DNA of 64,000 nt, taken from NCBI GenBank assembly GCA_937928555.1, contig CALFWR010000006.1, forward strand, positions 1 to 64,000, written 5' to 3'. The DNA comes from an uncultured Pirellulaceae bacterium (GTDB lineage: Bacteria; Planctomycetota; Planctomycetia; Pirellulales; Pirellulaceae). The notes beneath the pieces were generated by a model. That model worked only from the letters and a program-made list of their open reading frames with translations, was not told the DNA's origin and searched no databases. Positions within the stretch are counted from its first letter, which is position 1, and the number at the start of each line of letters is the position of its first letter. Shown one piece after another: positions 17,574 to 27,652 of the stretch. The position numbers and the translations under genes were made by a program.

Positions 17574-20500
17574 CTATTGGTCTTCCTGTTCGATCGTTTG
17601 GTCCGTTTGTGCTTGCCCATTGCCATTTTCATTCTCCTCTGCCGCCTCTTGCGGTTGCGCGACTTTTTCGCGCTGAGCGTCTTCGTTGCGGTCGGCTTCC
17701 AGATGGCTGATCAACGATGCATCGATTCGTTGGGTGACTTCTTCAGCATCGTACCACCAGTCCGGAGACCACACACGCAGAATGTTCCAGCCCAAACCTT
17801 CAAGCACCAACTGCCGGGTCAAATCGCGATCGCGAGCCACCGCCGAACGGTGATAGGTGGCGCCATCGCATTCGACTCCCGCCAAAAAGACACCGGGTTT
17901 GTCGGGATGCCGGACGCCGATGTCGATGCGAAAACCTGACACGCCCACCTGTGGAACAATGTCCCAACCCCGGTTCTGCAGCGCTTCGGCGACGGCTTCT
18001 TCGAACGGCGAATCAAAACCACCGACGCTGCCTGCGGTGAAAGAACCCAGCGGTTTGGTGCCGTTTGACTGCGCGAACTCAAGGAACTTTTTCAAATCGT
18101 TGAGCCCCCGGGATTTCGAGCGGGCCGCGTCGAGCTGCTCCGGCGGGAAGCTGGTGTACACGATCATCTGCTGCCGTGACCGGGTCACCGCGACGTTCAG
18201 TCGACGATGGCCGCCTTCGCGATTGAGCGCCCCAAAGTTCAAACTGATTTGCGGATTGGATTCCGTCGGACCAAAGGTGATCGAAAAGTACATCACATCG
18301 CGTTCGTCACCCTGCACGTTTTCGAGGTTCTTGACAACGGTCGGTTCGATCCGCGTATCACTGAAGTACCACTCGATCTCCGGGTTGTCGAGGCGGGCTT
18401 TGTCGAACAGATCCTGAATCAGTTCCTGTTGCTGCATGTTGAACGTGACCACGCCAAAGGTCCGACGATCGTCCGGTTCCGTTTCAAGGTTGGCTTTCAT
18501 TCGCTGAACCGCGTCGGCGACAATGGCATCGGCTTCTTTGCGATTGGTGCGGCTTTTGCCCAGGTCGTATCGGGCATCGGGAACTTGCACCAGCGACACG
18601 CCCAGATCGCGATCATCGGCGGCTGGAAAAGTTATCAAACGGTTGCCGTAGTAGCTGTAGTTGGAAAACGCGATCAGCGACTCGTGTCGACTGCGGTAGT
18701 GCCAATCCAGCCGCAACGTCGGCAAGCCCGATGCTTTGGCTTCATCCAAAATGCTCTCCAGATCCTTTTCCTGATCTTCCAGTTCTTCATCGAATTCTTC
18801 TTCATCGCTTTTGTCGAAAAAGCTCGTCGGCGGAAGCTGATTGGGGTCACCGACGATGATCGTTTGCTTTCCACGAGCAATCGCACCGATCGCATCCCAA
18901 GTCGGAATCTGTGAAGCCTCGTCAAAGATCACCACATCGAATGGTTTCATTTCGGCGGGCAGATACTGGGCGATTGACAGCGGCGACATCAACAGGCAGG
19001 GAGCCAGTTTGCGGAACGAGTCGGGCATTGCGGTGACAACGTCGCGGATCGATTTGCTGGGTCGCTTGAGGTTCATCTGGTGCCGCAGCAAACCGAGTTC
19101 CGATTTTTTGGCAACGGCTTCGGGTTGCGGCAAACCGTGTGCAATCCGATGCCGCGCCTGATCTGCTGCCAGGTCACGTTTCTTTTGATCAAGCTCGCGA
19201 AACGATTGAATCGCTTTTTCGTGATCGACCGTAGAGAACTTGCGAAGAATCGGCGATCCGTCGACAAGGCCGGGAATCAGCCATTTGGCGTAGCCGGCGC
19301 GAAACAGCCGCGGCAGTTGCTGGCTCGTTGCACCGTCGCCAAGCATGCCGGCCAGGGGTTGGAGTCCCTGATCTTTTGCCGCCGCTTTGGCGGCGCACCA
19401 CGCCGTCCATGGTTTGAGCAGTTTTTTGTTTTCCAGAATCAAACTTAGCGACTGATCCGCCGACTGGCAAAGCGGAGCGTCGCCCGCAGCGATCGAAGTG
19501 CCAGAGAGTTTCGTAAACTCGTCGCGGGTTCTTTCAAACGCAGACCAAGCCGTTTGGAAATCGGCTGCCCGGGAAGCCAGCGTTTTGCGATCGTCCGGGC
19601 TCGCGTTGACCAGGGCAGGGCGGATCGAATCGTTGGCTCCGTGCGACTGATCGCATTGTTGGACTGCGGCGTGCAAACGTTTGGCTTGTTGCAGTTCGGC
19701 TTCCACCGCAGAGACCTCAGACTGGTCGCCTTTCCAACAGAGAAGTTTGTCGGCGGCTGAATTTGCATCGAGGACTTTTCTGGATTTGAAAATACCACGC
19801 AGTGCGGGCAAGTCCGTTTCCGGGTTCGCGTTTCCAGAACCGGCATCGACATAAGTCTGCAACAACTTGCGGACTTTGCGTTTGGCGAACCACGACATCG
19901 GCCACCACTTCGAAACCGCCTCGCGCCACTGAAGGTCCAACTGATCCAGCGGCAAATCGCCCAGGCTGTTCTGGTAGCTTGCCGCGAGTGACTGTTTCGC
20001 AGCGGCAAGTTCCCGCAGCGCGACCATCTGATTTCCAAGCTGTTCACTGATCCGCTGAAAATTCGCATCCACCGCCAGTTCAACATTGTCGCAATCAACA
20101 ATCGCCCGTGAAAGCGACACCAGTTCGTCAACTTTTGCGGCACTGGCGTCGGTGACCTTGCCAAGCCCAACCTGCCGATTGAACGCCACCAATGATTGCT
20201 GCAGTTTGCTGGCGACGGGTCGGAGTTCGCTGGCTTTCTCCAACAGATCCTTCTCCCAGCGGATCGACCACTGTGAGTGATCCACCGGCAGCGATGGTTT
20301 GCCTTCGACGGACTGATACGCAGTTGCCAGCTCTTCGACCGTGGTTTCAAGTTTCCGATACGCGGCATCGGAATGCGTCGTGGAATCGTCCCAGTCGAAC
20401 TTTATTTCCGCAACGTCGCTGGCTTTGGCGGCAACCCCGAAGGCTTTGTAAGGAGTCCATCCGCTGGGATGCCGACGGTGGATCGTGGCCACGTACTCGT

Positions 20501-22880
20501 TCAACTGGTCGCGTTTGAGTTTCAATTCGTCGGTGACTTTGATCCATTGGTTATCATCGACGTCTCGATTATTGAGCCAGTTGTCTTCGAGCTGCTGCAG
20601 GAATTCGCGCCGCTGTGCCTTGCTGCTGTGAAGCTCAACGCAGCAGTCGCCGAGCCCAACCTTTTTCAGCCGCCGGTAGACGACTTCTAGGGCAGCCGTT
20701 TTTTCTGCCACAAACAGCACGGACTTCTGCGTCGCCAGGCACTGCGAAATCACGTTGGCGATGGTTTGACTTTTTCCCGTACCTGGCGGGCCGATCAGAA
20801 CAAAGTCCCTGCCGTCGGAAGCCGCCATGATCGCCGCCAGTTGCGACGAATCAGCATGCAGCGGATGGAAAATTTCGCCAGGATGGAACTGTCGATCGAT
20901 GTCGCCGGGATCGGGAATCTCGCCGCTGCCGGGATCGAAAACTTCGCTTGGTTTGTCCAGCAGGTGGCGAACGACGCGATTCTCTTTGAGCTGTTCGGTG
21001 CGATCGACGAGGTCTTTCCACAGCAGATATTTGGAAAACGAAAACCGGCCGATCGCGCACTGATCGATGACTTCAAAGCCCGCGATGTCGCGAACGTAAT
21101 GGCGGACTTGCCGGAGAACCCTGGAGACGTCGACGCCGCTACCGTCGGTGGGCAGCGCTGATTCAAAGCCCGATATGTTTTTGCCGAAGTCCTGTTTGAG
21201 CAGCTGGATCAGCGTCGAATTGAATCGCGTTTCGTCTTCGAAGGAACGCAGATAAAACGGCGACTGGCTGCTTTTCCGCTTCAGCCGAATGGGCACCAGC
21301 AGGATCGGTGCCTTATACGTTTTCTTTTCGCTTTCGCTGCGCCGCCAACGCAGAAAGCCAACCGCCAGGAACAACGTGTTGGTGCCGCCTTCGGACATGT
21401 CGTTGCGGACGGCGCGGTAAATCTTGACCAGTCGCTTTTCAAGTTCCTCCTGGGCCAAATCGCAGCTGACTTCCTTGCGACCGAGGGCCTTGGTGGCGAA
21501 TTCGCGATTGAGGTCCAGGTTCGTTTTCTGTTCGTGCAGTTTCTGGTCGCGATCGCCAAGCGGATTCTGATCGGACAGCGAAATCAGCAGCAGCTTTTTA
21601 TCCTGAGCAAGAAGGTCTTCCAGTTTGGCGATGTCGGGACAGAGCACCGGAACCGTTTGCTTGGTCGACCGAAAGTTCAACAATCGGTTACGCAGCGTCA
21701 GATCAAGCAGCTTTCGCTGCCACCGATCGATACGTCCGCTGGACGTCGATGGCAACTGCTCCACCGTCTCGCCCGGCAGCCCCGAAAAGTCCGGCGGTTC
21801 GGAAAGCGGAACCGCAGGAGGTGACGGTTTGACGACCGGAGTTTCTTCTGGTTTGGTCGTTGGCGTGTGCGATGCGAGTGGGCGAATCTGTGCCATCCGA
21901 GCCCGCGACACGTCGATCACCGCGACGAATTCGCTTTCTTGCGGCAGGCTGGTTTTCTCCCGCGCCGTTTTGACGGCTTCTTCGAATCGGGCAGGTGCCG
22001 CCTGGGTGGCGAGCGTCGTCTCAAAGGTCACCAACTCGCCAGCGTCGATGGCCTTGCGGATTTCGCTGGAGTCTTTTTCGACCAGTTTGCCGTGGAGTTT
22101 GTCGCCCAACCAGGCTCCCACAAAACAGTGTCCTTTTGTCAACACGATCACCGGATGCAAGCCCGCGGCTTCGATCGCCGCCGCAAACAGCAGCGAAGTA
22201 TCCAGGCACGTTGACAATCCCTGCTCAAGGATCACGCTCGGCAATCGTGTCTTTTGCCCGGACTTTTCGAAGCTTGCCGGCGGGTTGGCGTAGGTGATCT
22301 CAAGGCTCGCGATCGACGACCAGATCGCCGCAAGCAAAGTCCAGACTCGCCGCGGGTCTTCGCTTTGATATCCATCGATAGAAGAGTTTTTGCCGTAGCG
22401 TTCCAGAACTGAAGCCGCGTTTTTGAGAATCGTAGCCACCGCCGGATCGTTGGGCATCACAAACGCGGCCAACAGTTCCGGAGAAGACCCGCATCCACCC
22501 CACTGGTCGCGAGCGAGCAAACGAACATCGATTACCGATTCGGTGATTTGCCGGTCGCCTGCGGTGACCGTAAAACGAAGCTGCCCCCGTTCGGCTTCGT
22601 TGAGTCCACCCAAGTAGCGGACGTCCAGGTCGATGTCGCGATCGTCGATGGTGACTTTGTCCCGAGCCAACACGCGGGACAGCTTCCATGTCCTGGTTCG
22701 CAGAAACGGTGGCTCGGACGTCAGGTCAATTTTGACGTCATCAAAAATCTCCGATGACGTGTTGCTGATCGTCAATGCACCAAGCAGGGGGATCGAGTTT
22801 TGCCAGGCGGCATAGCTATAGTCGCCAGGCAGTTTGGCGAAGATCGAGATCGCAGGCTGGGCTTCGCTGGAATCGTTCAA
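17574..22880 (-). CDS. Hhe-like DUF4011-helicase-Vsr-type endonuclease protein
   Basis: A giant protein (1768 residues from TTG 22880; the frame is open to ATG 23042, but its first 54 residues look non-coding and overlap the next gene). An N-terminal region contains a transglutaminase-like segment (CLDTSLLFAAA near 225, GHCFVGAWL near 249). DUF4011 follows (RWQRKLLDLTLRNRLLNF near 383), then a superfamily 1 helicase core with Walker A GPPGTGKS near 695 and DEAS near 1317. A C-terminal endonuclease-like domain (FRIDIG near 1650, ECDG near 1668) is of the MTES_1575/Vsr type. DUF4011-helicase-Vsr proteins are, as I recall, reported single-gene phage-defence factors (Hhe). Antiviral function here is inferred from architecture. 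The start is uncertain. Confidence 0.88.
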   Translation of the reverse strand: MNDSSEAQPAISIFAKLPGDYSYAAWQNSIPLLGALTISNTSSEIFDDVKIDLTSEPPFLRTRTWKLSRVLARDKVTIDDRDIDLDVRYLGGLNEAERGQLRFTVTAGDRQITESVIDVRLLARDQWGGCGSSPELLAAFVMPNDPAVATILKNAASVLERYGKNSSIDGYQSEDPRRVWTLLAAIWSSIASLEITYANPPASFEKSGQKTRLPSVILEQGLSTCLDTSLLFAAAIEAAGLHPVIVLTKGHCFVGAWLGDKLHGKLVEKDSSEIRKAIDAGELVTFETTLATQAAPARFEEAVKTAREKTSLPQESEFVAVIDVSRARMAQIRPLASHTPTTKPEETPVVKPSPPAVPLSEPPDFSGLPGETVEQLPSTSSGRIDRWQRKLLDLTLRNRLLNFRSTKQTVPVLCPDIAKLEDLLAQDKKLLLISLSDQNPLGDRDQKLHEQKTNLDLNREFATKALGRKEVSCDLAQEELEKRLVKIYRAVRNDMSEGGTNTLFLAVGFLRWRRSESEKKTYKAPILLVPIRLKRKSSQSPFYLRSFEDETRFNSTLIQLLKQDFGKNISGFESALPTDGSGVDVSRVLRQVRHYVRDIAGFEVIDQCAIGRFSFSKYLLWKDLVDRTEQLKENRVVRHLLDKPSEVFDPGSGEIPDPGDIDRQFHPGEIFHPLHADSSQLAAIMAASDGRDFVLIGPPGTGKSQTIANVISQCLATQKSVLFVAEKTAALEVVYRRLKKVGLGDCCVELHSSKAQRREFLQQLEDNWLNNRDVDDNQWIKVTDELKLKRDQLNEYVATIHRRHPSGWTPYKAFGVAAKASDVAEIKFDWDDSTTHSDAAYRKLETTVEELATAYQSVEGKPSLPVDHSQWSIRWEKDLLEKASELRPVASKLQQSLVAFNRQVGLGKVTDASAAKVDELVSLSRAIVDCDNVELAVDANFQRISEQLGNQMVALRELAAAKQSLAASYQNSLGDLPLDQLDLQWREAVSKWWPMSWFAKRKVRKLLQTYVDAGSGNANPETDLPALRGIFKSRKVLDANSAADKLLCWKGDQSEVSAVEAELQQAKRLHAAVQQCDQSHGANDSIRPALVNASPDDRKTLASRAADFQTAWSAFERTRDEFTKLSGTSIAAGDAPLCQSADQSLSLILENKKLLKPWTAWCAAKAAAKDQGLQPLAGMLGDGATSQQLPRLFRAGYAKWLIPGLVDGSPILRKFSTVDHEKAIQSFRELDQKKRDLAADQARHRIAHGLPQPEAVAKKSELGLLRHQMNLKRPSKSIRDVVTAMPDSFRKLAPCLLMSPLSIAQYLPAEMKPFDVVIFDEASQIPTWDAIGAIARGKQTIIVGDPNQLPPTSFFDKSDEEEFDEELEDQEKDLESILDEAKASGLPTLRLDWHYRSRHESLIAFSNYSYYGNRLITFPAADDRDLGVSLVQVPDARYDLGKSRTNRKEADAIVADAVQRMKANLETEPDDRRTFGVVTFNMQQQELIQDLFDKARLDNPEIEWYFSDTRIEPTVVKNLENVQGDERDVMYFSITFGPTESNPQISLNFGALNREGGHRRLNVAVTRSRQQMIVYTSFPPEQLDAARSKSRGLNDLKKFLEFAQSNGTKPLGSFTAGSVGGFDSPFEEAVAEALQNRGWDIVPQVGVSGFRIDIGVRHPDKPGVFLAGVECDGATYHRSAVARDRDLTRQLVLEGLGWNILRVWSPDWWYDAEEVTQRIDASLISHLEADRNEDAQREKVAQPQEAAEENENGNGQAQTDQTIEQEDQ

Positions 22881-23020
22881 GGGTTGGCTTGCCGTGAGGA
22901 CCGTGAGAAAGATGCAAGATATCCGATCCGCTCTGGTGTCACAATTCTCGGAATCCACGTGGTTGTGGCTTCCCGTGGCAACCACGCAACCACCACACTC
23001 CACAACCGCATCCCGCGCAC

Positions 23021-23560
23021 CTACCCTGGCCCGCTGACGCAAGCCAGAATCTCATCCACACTTGGACGATCGTGGGGCGTGACGCTCTGGTGGTGCATCC
23101 GGACAATCCCGTCTGGATCGATCAAAACGTTGCCACCCATCTGGCGAACGTCCTTTCCCGGTCGCCTAGGAGGATGGCCCGTCAGCATCAGCCACAGATA
23201 CTTGAGAGTCGTGATCGGACCCAAAAGTTTGGCAAGCGTTGCTCTTTCGAAACCGTAGGCCTTGTACAGATCCAGTTCTTCATCCAGAAGCAAGGGCCAC
23301 CGCAAACCCATCTCTTCGACGTAGGTTTTTCCCATTGTCGGCGAATCAAAAGAAACGACTTTGACCTGGACGCCACGTTCTTCAAACTGATTTTCTCCCT
23401 GCCGCAACTGCGACAGATGTGCCCGGCAGGGTGGTCAGCCCAGATGACGGTGAAAGACAAGCAACAACCAGCGACCCGCCGAATCACTCAGCGTGTGCTC
23501 GACACCGGTCGTGTCATCGATGTTGAAGGCCATGGCCTTCCGGTCAACTTTGCTTTTCAT
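23021..23560 (-). CDS. Peroxiredoxin-like (AhpC/TSA-2) redoxin, probable selenoprotein with in-frame TGA
   Basis: Read through one TGA at complement 23435-23437, the frame from ATG 23560 gives a 179-residue redoxin. The TGA is codon 42 and falls exactly on the first catalytic cysteine of the CxxC motif (context RHLG-TGA-PPC), giving U42-P-P-C45. Strong family sequence lies on both sides: RWLLLVFHRHLG before, and CRAHLSQLR, VSFDSP and WPLLLDEELDLYKAYG after. A stem-loop immediately downstream (23397-23431) fits a bacterial SECIS. Thiol/selenol redox chemistry is expected; the substrate is unknown. A start after the TGA would lose the active site. A simple nonsense mutation is the alternative. 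No sel genes are in this window. The next gene is the Hhe-like helicase. Confidence 0.75.
23397..23431 (-). promoter_or_regulatory. Candidate SECIS hairpin after in-frame TGA
   Basis: Three nucleotides after the TGA, the message forms a perfect 8-bp stem (CCCUGCCG with CGGCAGGG). It encloses a 19-nt loop in which CUG/CAG can pair to present an apical UCG, with a GU about 21 nt after the UGA. Position, size and apical GU match the bacterial SECIS pattern that recruits SelB. Confidence 0.65.
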
Positions 23561-25591: not shown

Positions 25592-27652
25592 TCAACTGGC
25601 AGCTTCGATCTCGACGCGGATGTCTTTGAACATCGGACCGTCTGCCATGTCGGCCGAATCCTCTGCGACCACCGCGTTGGCGGAGGCCCCGCCATTGAAC
25701 CGTGGCCAGTATCCTTTGGGTGTGTGCGCTACGCCGGGTTGGACTTTGTCGTCGCAAATGAGAACCGCGCGGTACTCGCCGCGCTGGTTGAAAACGCGGA
25801 CTTTGGAACCGTCGGACAGAGAAAGCCGATCCGCATCGCCGGGGTGAATCGAAATCGTGATTGAACCCGCCGCTGCGTTGCGGTTGCGGTTTCCATAGAT
25901 CGAATTGAGCATCCGCTTGCTCGCCGATGTGACAAGCGCGAACGAGTTCTTGGGCCCGGACTTGAGGGCTTCACGGGGCGGAACAAAGTGGGGAAACCGG
26001 CCGTGGCCATCGGCTTCCGCTGCGGCGGACTCAAACTCGAACTTGCCCGAAGCGGTCGGAAACGACCGCACAAAAGGAAGAAAGGGCCGCTCATAGTTCA
26101 GCCTCGCCCAGCCACGCTCTTTGAGGCTTTCGAGTGAAATTGGCGACATGGCCGGATGACCCGAATCCAACAACTCGCGAGCGATGGTTTCATCGTCAGC
26201 AAACAATGCGGGCTCGCTCAAATTCATCGCCGCTGCCACGCGGCGAAAGATCTCCGTGTGCGGCAAACACTCGCCGCGCGGTTCCGCAACGGGCTCGTTC
26301 CACTGGATGTACATGTGGCTGAACGAATCGTGCAAGTCCGCGTGTTCGGTCTGCATCGTCCCGGGCAAGATGATGTCCGCGTAGTCGGCGGTGTCGGTGC
26401 GAAAGTTCTCGATGACGACCGTGAACAGGTCTTCCCTGGCCAGGCCTTTGCGGACGCGGCCCTGACCGGGGTTGGAAGCCACCGGGTTGGCACCCCACAG
26501 AAACAGGAACTTGACCGGCGGATCATCGGTCTCCAACAAGCTTCGGCCCAGGCGGGTCATGGCAAGTTCACGCCTCGGGCCGCCAGGTTGCAAGTCCGGT
26601 CGGCACAGTGCGTCGTAGTTGAACTTGTAGGTGGGTCCGGTCGAGTAGACCATTCCGCCGCCAGGTCGTTCGAAAGAACCCATCACCGCCGGCAGGCAGG
26701 ACAGCACCCGCGCCGCCTGACCGCCGCCCCGATGCTGCTGCAAACCCATCGCGGTCTTGATTCCCATGGGTGGACTTTCGGCGATCCACGCTGCAAGTTT
26801 GCGAATGTCGTCTGCGGGTAAACGACAGACCTCGGCGGCTTTCTCGACTGAGAACTCTTTCACGACCGTATCGCGAAAGCCTTCCCAGCCCACAGTCATG
26901 CGGCCGAGGTAGTCCGCGTTGACAGCATCGGTTCGAACCAGTTGGTGGATCAAACCAAGCACCAAGGCACCGTCGGTCCCCGGGTGCAGCGGCAAGTGAA
27001 AGTCGGCTCGCTTTGCCGTTTCGGTTCGAATCGGATCGATGCTGACGACTTTGGCGTTGTTTTCTTTTTGGGCTTTCCTGATGAAAGGCCACAGGTGCTG
27101 ATTGGTTTCAACAGTGTTGGTTGCCCACAGCAAAATCAGTTTCGATTCGGTCAGGTCTTCGGGATCCATTCCCGCCGCCGACCCCATCGTGTACTTCATC
27201 CCCGCATGTCCGGCCATGGAGCAGATGTTGGGATTGTGCCGCGACGCGCCCAGGGCATGAAACAGCCGCTTTCCGCCTCCCAGCATTCCCTGAATGAGCC
27301 CCACCGTGCCGGTGCCGGCATAGGGCAGGATGGCTTCGCTGCCAAAGTCATCAATCGCCGATTGCAGCTTGCCCGCAATTTCGTCGATCGCCTCATCCCA
27401 CGAGATACGCTCAAACGCGCCACTGCCTTTGGCTCCCACGCGTCGCATTGGATACAGCAATCGCTCCGGGTGGTTGACTTCATCGAGGTACTTGAGCGTT
27501 TTGGCGCACAGCGTCTTTCCGGTGAATGGGTGGTCGGGATTGCCGCGCAGCTTCTTCGGCTGTCCGTCTTCCAGTTCCACAATCCACGAACATCCGTCGG
27601 GGCAGTCCAGCGGACAAGCACCGATGGCAGCGCTCATTGCTTTATCAGTCAT
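25592..27652 (-). CDS. Molybdopterin-dependent oxidoreductase (DMSO reductase superfamily)
   Basis: A 686-residue catalytic subunit with an N-terminal [4Fe-4S] site (CPLDCPDGC at residues 13-21 plus a cysteine near 49). The molybdopterin-binding core includes NICSMAGHAG (near 142, region of the molybdenum ligand) and LWATNTVETNQHLWP, and a C-terminal dinucleotide-binding domain carries SASKRMLNSIYGN. There is no twin-arginine signal, so it is probably cytoplasmic. The family includes assimilatory nitrate reductases, formate dehydrogenases and polysulfide/thiosulfate reductases; I cannot choose among these. No partner subunits or molybdenum cofactor genes lie nearby. The ATG at 27652 begins just before the Fe-S motif. 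Confidence 0.88.
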   Translation of the reverse strand: MTDKAMSAAIGACPLDCPDGCSWIVELEDGQPKKLRGNPDHPFTGKTLCAKTLKYLDEVNHPERLLYPMRRVGAKGSGAFERISWDEAIDEIAGKLQSAIDDFGSEAILPYAGTGTVGLIQGMLGGGKRLFHALGASRHNPNICSMAGHAGMKYTMGSAAGMDPEDLTESKLILLWATNTVETNQHLWPFIRKAQKENNAKVVSIDPIRTETAKRADFHLPLHPGTDGALVLGLIHQLVRTDAVNADYLGRMTVGWEGFRDTVVKEFSVEKAAEVCRLPADDIRKLAAWIAESPPMGIKTAMGLQQHRGGGQAARVLSCLPAVMGSFERPGGGMVYSTGPTYKFNYDALCRPDLQPGGPRRELAMTRLGRSLLETDDPPVKFLFLWGANPVASNPGQGRVRKGLAREDLFTVVIENFRTDTADYADIILPGTMQTEHADLHDSFSHMYIQWNEPVAEPRGECLPHTEIFRRVAAAMNLSEPALFADDETIARELLDSGHPAMSPISLESLKERGWARLNYERPFLPFVRSFPTASGKFEFESAAAEADGHGRFPHFVPPREALKSGPKNSFALVTSASKRMLNSIYGNRNRNAAAGSITISIHPGDADRLSLSDGSKVRVFNQRGEYRAVLICDDKVQPGVAHTPKGYWPRFNGGASANAVVAEDSADMADGPMFKDIRVEIEAAS

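What the first reader, a model, noticed from the sequence alone, without database searches (positions are those of the whole stretch)
23021..23560. Selenoprotein: TGA at the catalytic cysteine of a peroxiredoxin-like protein
The redoxin frame is continuous from ATG 23560 to TAG 23021 except for one TGA at complement 23435-23437. That codon lies exactly where the family has the first cysteine of CxxC, leaving U-P-P-C. Three nucleotides downstream is an 8-bp hairpin with an apical GU about 21 nt after the UGA, as in bacterial SECIS elements. A standard annotation would call only the 128-residue part after the TGA and miss the active site. Selenocysteine-containing redoxins of this fold are known in bacteria (established); that this one is decoded is inferred.
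Basis: partly seen in the sequence, partly recalled or inferred. Interest (0 to 1): 0.85.

Follow-up and report, generated by a model that had tools for sequence, protein, structure and literature searches.

The report
Planctomycete selenocysteine-containing redoxin (SelL-related)
A small bacterial redox enzyme almost certainly reads an apparent stop codon as the rare amino acid selenocysteine in its active site; this belongs to an already described selenoprotein family, and ordinary gene calling would cut the protein short and lose the active site.

Summary
One in-frame TGA (complement 23437-23435) interrupts an otherwise open 179-codon redoxin frame at the first position of a U-P-P-C motif. 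The genome holds SelA, SelB, SelD and tRNA-Sec. All 28 close homologues compared (27 related genomes plus this one) have TGA at that codon. More distant homologues have Cys there, mostly in genomes without SelA (37 of 39 TGA genomes have SelA, against 7 of 35 Cys-only genomes). Downstream lies a conserved 7-bp hairpin with an invariant AGUU loop and strong compensatory change (31 double-changed cells; 0 of 500 shuffles reach this). It fits the published bacterial SECIS model and is lacking in Cys homologues. The protein scores above cut-off for NCBIfam NF040769, SelL-related redox protein (169 bits against 120), and the model is a thioredoxin fold with Sec at the start of a helix. It is a new member of a known selenoprotein kind. 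Decoding and substrate are not shown experimentally.

The parts
23021..23560 (-). Selenoprotein gene, SelL-related redox protein (AhpC/TSA-like thioredoxin fold), 179 residues with Sec42
   Evidence: Translation with TGA read as U; Pfam AhpC-TSA 3.3e-21; NCBIfam NF040769 169.2 bits, cut-off 120; AlphaFold pLDDT 91.1
23435..23437 (-). TGA codon 42, first position of the U-P-P-C motif
   Evidence: TGA in 28/28 close homologues; TGC/TGT in homologues without TGA
23426..23428 (-). TGC codon for Cys45, the second redox residue of UxxC (invariant)
   Evidence: Alignment A3, invariant C45
23399..23416 (-). Putative bacterial SECIS hairpin, 7 bp, CUGUCGC-AGUU-GCGGCAG
   Evidence: Covariation: 95.9% of cells paired, 31 double-changed cells, 0/500 shuffles; RNAalifold finds the same hairpin unprompted; -9.9 kcal/mol alone
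23406..23409 (-). Invariant apical loop AGUU with GU at 23408-23407; loop starts 25 nt after the UGA
   Evidence: AGTT in 28/28; codons CAG and TTG fixed in 28/28 while other invariant residues vary synonymously
23397..23431 (-).
   Evidence: 58% paired, no covariation; favoured in free RNA (-17.5 kcal/mol) but lost when the first 6 nt after the UGA are masked

Best explanation
A selenoprotein gene. SelB brings Sec-tRNA(UCA) to the UGA at codon 42 because it recognises the AGUU-capped hairpin that lies 19-36 nt downstream in the coding sequence, so the ribosome reads through and makes a 179-residue redoxin. The product has a thioredoxin fold; Sec42 at the start of the first long helix is the attacking residue and Cys45 the partner, giving a selenenylsulfide that is reduced by a cellular thiol system. 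It most likely acts as a cytosolic peroxidase or thiol/disulfide oxidoreductase of the SelL-related type. Shown here: frame, machinery genes, conservation, covariation, family, predicted fold. Inferred: decoding, chemistry, substrate and reductant.
For: Machinery: tRNA-Sec 70 bits (cut-off 47), SelB 360 bits, SelA 565 bits, SelD 249 bits, all over cut-off. TGA at the same codon in 28/28 close homologues, the 27 others 38-59% identical to the window protein. Homologues without TGA have Cys there, and TGA forms occur in genomes with SelA: 37/39 against 7/35 for Cys-only, Fisher p about 1e-11, phylogeny not corrected. Hairpin: 4 of 7 pairs with compensatory changes, 31 cells, 0/500 shuffles; all slid versions far lower. 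Matches the published bSECIS model: loop 3-9 nt, stem 4-16 bp, G in first two loop positions, 16-37 nt from UGA, MFE at or below -7.5 (PMC13188914; values). Codons CAG-TTG under the loop are fixed in 28/28. Cys homologues: 77 of 80 lack the AGTT loop and none has all 7 pairs. Fold: pLDDT 91.1, helix 43-54 right after residue 42.
Against: No expression or mass-spectrometry data. In free RNA the 8-bp alternative is more stable (-17.5 against -11.4 kcal/mol), so the SECIS hairpin needs the ribosome to mask the 5' arm (inference). Two TGA genomes of the phylum sample (G310, G360) and five close relatives lack a SelA hit over the cut-off; all are incomplete drafts, and three of those five have SelB. 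A few close relatives have a weaker hairpin by strict pairing (L026, L032, L042). The window assembly is itself a draft, 91% complete.
Confidence: 0.96

Rival explanations
1. Pseudogene or sequencing error: the TGA is a nonsense mutation or a misread TGC/TGT in an ordinary Cys redoxin.
For: The window assembly is a 168-contig draft; Cys homologues exist.
Against: The same TGA in 28/28 independent genomes with an otherwise intact frame and conserved protein on both sides; covarying hairpin and frozen loop codons.
Confidence: 0.01
2. UGA is reassigned (for example to Trp or Cys) or read through without selenium, so that the residue is Cys or something else.
For: The homologous residue is Cys in many genomes, and the tools cannot see the inserted residue.
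Against: TGA is used as the terminal stop of this very gene in about half of the relatives, so it is not reassigned genome-wide there. A full Sec pathway is present, with the SECIS-like hairpin next to the site.
Confidence: 0.02
3. Termination and restart: two short peptides are made, the 128-residue ORF from TTG 23407 being the functional product.
For: A start codon (TTG) exists 10 codons after the TGA.
Against: The TTG is the loop codon of the hairpin and encodes the nearly invariant Leu52 of the family. The 128-aa product lacks strand 31-36 and the whole UxxC site. The 41 codons before the TGA are conserved as protein.
Confidence: 0.01

Closest known systems
NCBIfam NF040769, SelL-related redox protein
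   Same: Full-length match over the curated cut-off (169.2 against 120 bits); all 38 aligned Sec and Cys members match it.
   Different: No difference found in the protein. The window and its close relatives form an F-H-R-H-L-[GAS]-U-x-x-C subgroup with a shared AGUU hairpin.
Prx-like UxxC selenoproteins of bacteria (Sargasso Sea 'Prx-like', GOS 'Prx-like 1', PF00578; PMC1088965, PMC2398784, PMC13188914)
   Same: PF00578 family, Sec as first residue of UxxC, in-frame bSECIS.
   Different: No sequence-level comparison with the published members was made here, so identity with that subfamily is likely but untested.
Selenoprotein L (UxxU)
   Same: NCBI names the family as SelL-related; Prx-like fold, Sec in the same type of motif (that SelL has UxxU is from my own knowledge).
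   Different: UxxC here, not UxxU; second position is an invariant Cys.
Classical Sec peroxiredoxin PrxU (TxxU)
   Same: AhpC/TSA superfamily, Sec at the active site.
   Different: Motif UxxC, not PxxxTxxU; NF040737 (PrxU) scores only 29 bits against a cut-off of 270.
Prostamide/prostaglandin F synthase (PDB 9usa, 9us9)
   Same: Highest TM-score normalised to the query (0.76) among the 50 matches shown, and a sequence-profile match along most of its length.
   Different: 21% identity in the structural alignment, Cys not Sec; no evidence for the same substrate.

Membership tests
Bacterial selenoprotein (SelB-dependent) | In-frame UGA at a redox position where homologues have Cys | tested here: met
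   28/28 TGA in close homologues; TGC/TGT in the others
Bacterial selenoprotein (SelB-dependent) | SelA, SelB, SelC (tRNA-Sec) and SelD in the genome | tested here: met
   All over curated cut-offs
[quoted passage not shown]
   7 bp, AGUU, 25 nt, -9.9 kcal/mol, covarying
Bacterial selenoprotein (SelB-dependent) | Selenium present in the protein | not testable with these tools
   Needs 75Se labelling or mass spectrometry
NF040769 SelL-related redox protein | Score over curated cut-off 120 bits | tested here: met
   169.2 bits over residues 9-175
Selenoprotein L | UxxU motif with two Sec | tested here: not met
   UxxC; Cys45 invariant
Classical peroxiredoxin (PxxxTxxC/U) | PxxxT motif before the peroxidatic residue | tested here: not met
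   FHRHLGU in place of PxxxTxxU
Prx-like UxxC selenoproteins of the marine surveys | Sequence membership in the published subfamily | not tested

The most novel reading that the evidence does not exclude
The gene uses a compact 7-bp, AGUU-loop SECIS shared by a planctomycete subgroup, which in this genome competes with a private 8-bp stem, so that ribosome masking of the 5' arm could tune read-through of the UGA.
Probability: 0.1. Interest if true: 0.4.

Novelty: new member of a known kind. Interest (0 to 1): 0.22.

Why it matters
Automatic annotation truncates the gene and loses its active site, so the enzyme would be missed in these genomes. The searches also show that selenocysteine use is common in Planctomycetota (SelA over cut-off in 239 of 392 sampled genomes), although the one dedicated report found describes just a few planctomycetes (PMC4807772). 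The covarying hairpin and the Sec/Cys split give a clean natural data set on Sec-to-Cys exchange.

Tried and rejected
A first scan of genome contigs with the single protein found no relatives; the plasmid search gave only distant redoxins below 37% identity. Search for a conserved gene neighbourhood: shared neighbours only among eight close loci that do not include the window's own, plus a few pairs, so context gives no function. Scan of the window for other TGA-interrupted coding frames: the four other candidates have no redox motif at the TGA; the top one lies antisense to the helicase gene, and the other three were not pursued. Promoter scan: nothing. Literature search for a description of NF040769 or bacterial SelL: nothing beyond the GOS and review papers.

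Full report
What is there. On the minus strand, ATG 23560 to TAG 23021 encodes 179 residues with a single TGA at codon 42 (complement 23437-23435), in the motif HLG-U-PPC. A table-11 ORF list gives only a 128-aa TTG ORF from 23407. With Cys in place of U the protein matches Pfam AhpC-TSA (3.3e-21), Redoxin and AhpC-TSA_2 and NCBIfam NF040769, SelL-related redox protein, at 169.2 bits against a curated cut-off of 120. It has no close paralogue in its genome.

Organism. The sampled phylum includes contigs identical in length and place to named planctomycete records (G421:C32 and JAJTHN010000022, Phycisphaeraceae; G370:C136 and RECD01000238, Planctomycetaceae), so the window lies in Planctomycetota. 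G370 is placed in the window's own family.

Machinery. The genome has tRNA-Sec (70 bits, cut-off 47; the UCA anticodon is seen in the sequence), SelB (360 bits), SelA (565 bits) and SelD (249 bits), on four different contigs. SelD is fused behind an NADH-dehydrogenase-like domain and has Cys, not Sec, in its C-L-G-C motif; Ndh-SelD fusions with CxxC are described in PMC2398784.

Conservation of the TGA. Among 99 genomes searched (G000 and its relatives), 28 hold a close homologue (E at or below 7e-34) and all 28, the window included, have exactly one stop inside the match, a TGA; extraction shows it at the same codon in every one. G006 holds the gene split over two contigs, again with TGA in the front part. 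Both sides of the TGA are conserved as protein; F36, R38, H39, U/C42, C45 and P166 are invariant in 38 Sec and Cys members. In about half of the relatives the gene itself ends with TGA, so TGA is also a real stop in these organisms.

Sec and Cys. In a 392-genome sample of the phylum, the NF040769 family occurs with and without TGA. Members without TGA whose motif was inspected have TGC or TGT at the codon, as do all 80 motif-matched loci of genome contigs (that search pattern required Cys, so it shows that Cys homologues are widespread, not how common Sec is). Of 39 genomes with the TGA form, 37 have full SelA; of 35 with only the non-TGA form, 7 do (from; Fisher p about 1e-11, not corrected for shared ancestry). 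The two exceptions and the five close relatives without SelA over the cut-off are drafts; three of those five have SelB.

The recoding signal. The 28 sequences align without gaps after the TGA. RNAalifold finds one hairpin, alignment columns 22-28 with 33-39, loop AGUU. Counted directly: 95.9% of cells paired, 4 of 7 pairs with changes on both sides, 31 double-changed cells, none of 500 shuffles reaching that; every slid version is far lower. Gln-Leu at the loop is coded CAG-TTG in 28 of 28, while the other residues that are invariant among these 28 near the site (F, H, R, H, L before it and C after it) vary at synonymous sites. Serine in the codon before is always TCG where it occurs (14 of 14), and it too lies in the stem. 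The loop starts 25 nt after the UGA, has G in second place followed by U, and the 7-bp hairpin has -9.9 kcal/mol in the window. These values meet the bSECIS model printed in PMC13188914. Among 80 Cys loci, 77 lack the AGTT loop and none keeps all seven pairs, against 20 of 28 with seven and 8 with six pairs among the Sec genes.

The 8-bp stem CCCTGCCG/CGGCAGGG exists in the window and belongs to the minimum-energy fold of free RNA (-17.5 kcal/mol), but across relatives it is 58% paired with no covariation. Its 5' arm begins 3 nt after the UGA. When the first 6 or more nt after the UGA are masked, as a ribosome at the UGA would do (inference from general knowledge of ribosome footprints), the conserved hairpin has pair probabilities of 0.99 or more.

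Fold and likely function. AlphaFold with the 38-member alignment gives pLDDT 91.1, a thioredoxin-type fold with strand 31-36, then Sec42 directly before helix 43-54. Foldseek matches peroxiredoxins, ResA and human prostamide/prostaglandin F synthase (TM to the query 0.76, the highest among the 50 shown), and the sequence profile also reaches these. The classical Prx motif PxxxTxxC is absent, so it is peroxiredoxin-like and not a classical peroxiredoxin. The best-supported mechanism is Sec42 attack on a peroxide or disulfide and resolution by Cys45; substrate and reductant are unknown.

Novelty. The kind is known: UxxC Prx-like selenoproteins are listed in PMC1088965, PMC2398784 and PMC13188914, and NCBI has a model for this exact subfamily. 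A sequence-level match with the published members was not made. I file it as a new member of a known kind, with low interest and high confidence.

Noticed in passing
L049:1390-3582 (G000:C110): SelD of this genome is a 730-aa fusion with an NADH-dehydrogenase-like N-terminal domain and a C-L-G-C active-site motif, not Sec.
   Followed up: partly
L086:1501-1929: A Cys homologue (Chthonomonadaceae MAG) keeps the AGTT loop and 5 of 7 hairpin pairs: possibly a SECIS relic after a Sec-to-Cys change (L089 and L093 also keep AGTT, with 4 and 2 pairs).
   Followed up: no
L053:1501-1998; G403:C1:690833-691294 and 3397094-3397570: One single-contig planctomycete genome (G403) carries a TGA form and two non-TGA forms of the family.
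   Followed up: no
G089:C178:7289-7597; G063:C19:41449-41754; G069:C48:10528-10833; G031:C16:150276-150569; G041:C235:6659-6952: Weaker redoxin matches (about 30-36% identity, 200-240 aa frames) in related genomes also contain a single TGA each: probably further Sec redoxin families.
   Followed up: no
G045:C10:3657240-3658562; also G435, G301, G423, G475: Divergent SelA-like proteins (E from about 1e-44 to 1e-82, near or under the SelA cut-off) in genomes that have a non-TGA form of the family; may be SelA-like enzymes with another role.
   Followed up: no
phylum sample: SelA over the curated cut-off in 239 of 392 planctomycete genomes: selenocysteine use seems common in this phylum.
   Followed up: no
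window 17574-23042 (-): A large helicase/DUF4011/MTES_1575-endonuclease protein follows directly; the listed ORF start overlaps the end of the redoxin gene, so its true start is probably further downstream.
   Followed up: no
window 25592-27652 (-): Molybdopterin oxidoreductase (FdhA/DmsA superfamily, below every specific cut-off shown) in an open frame without in-frame TGA, close to the selenoprotein gene.
   Followed up: partly
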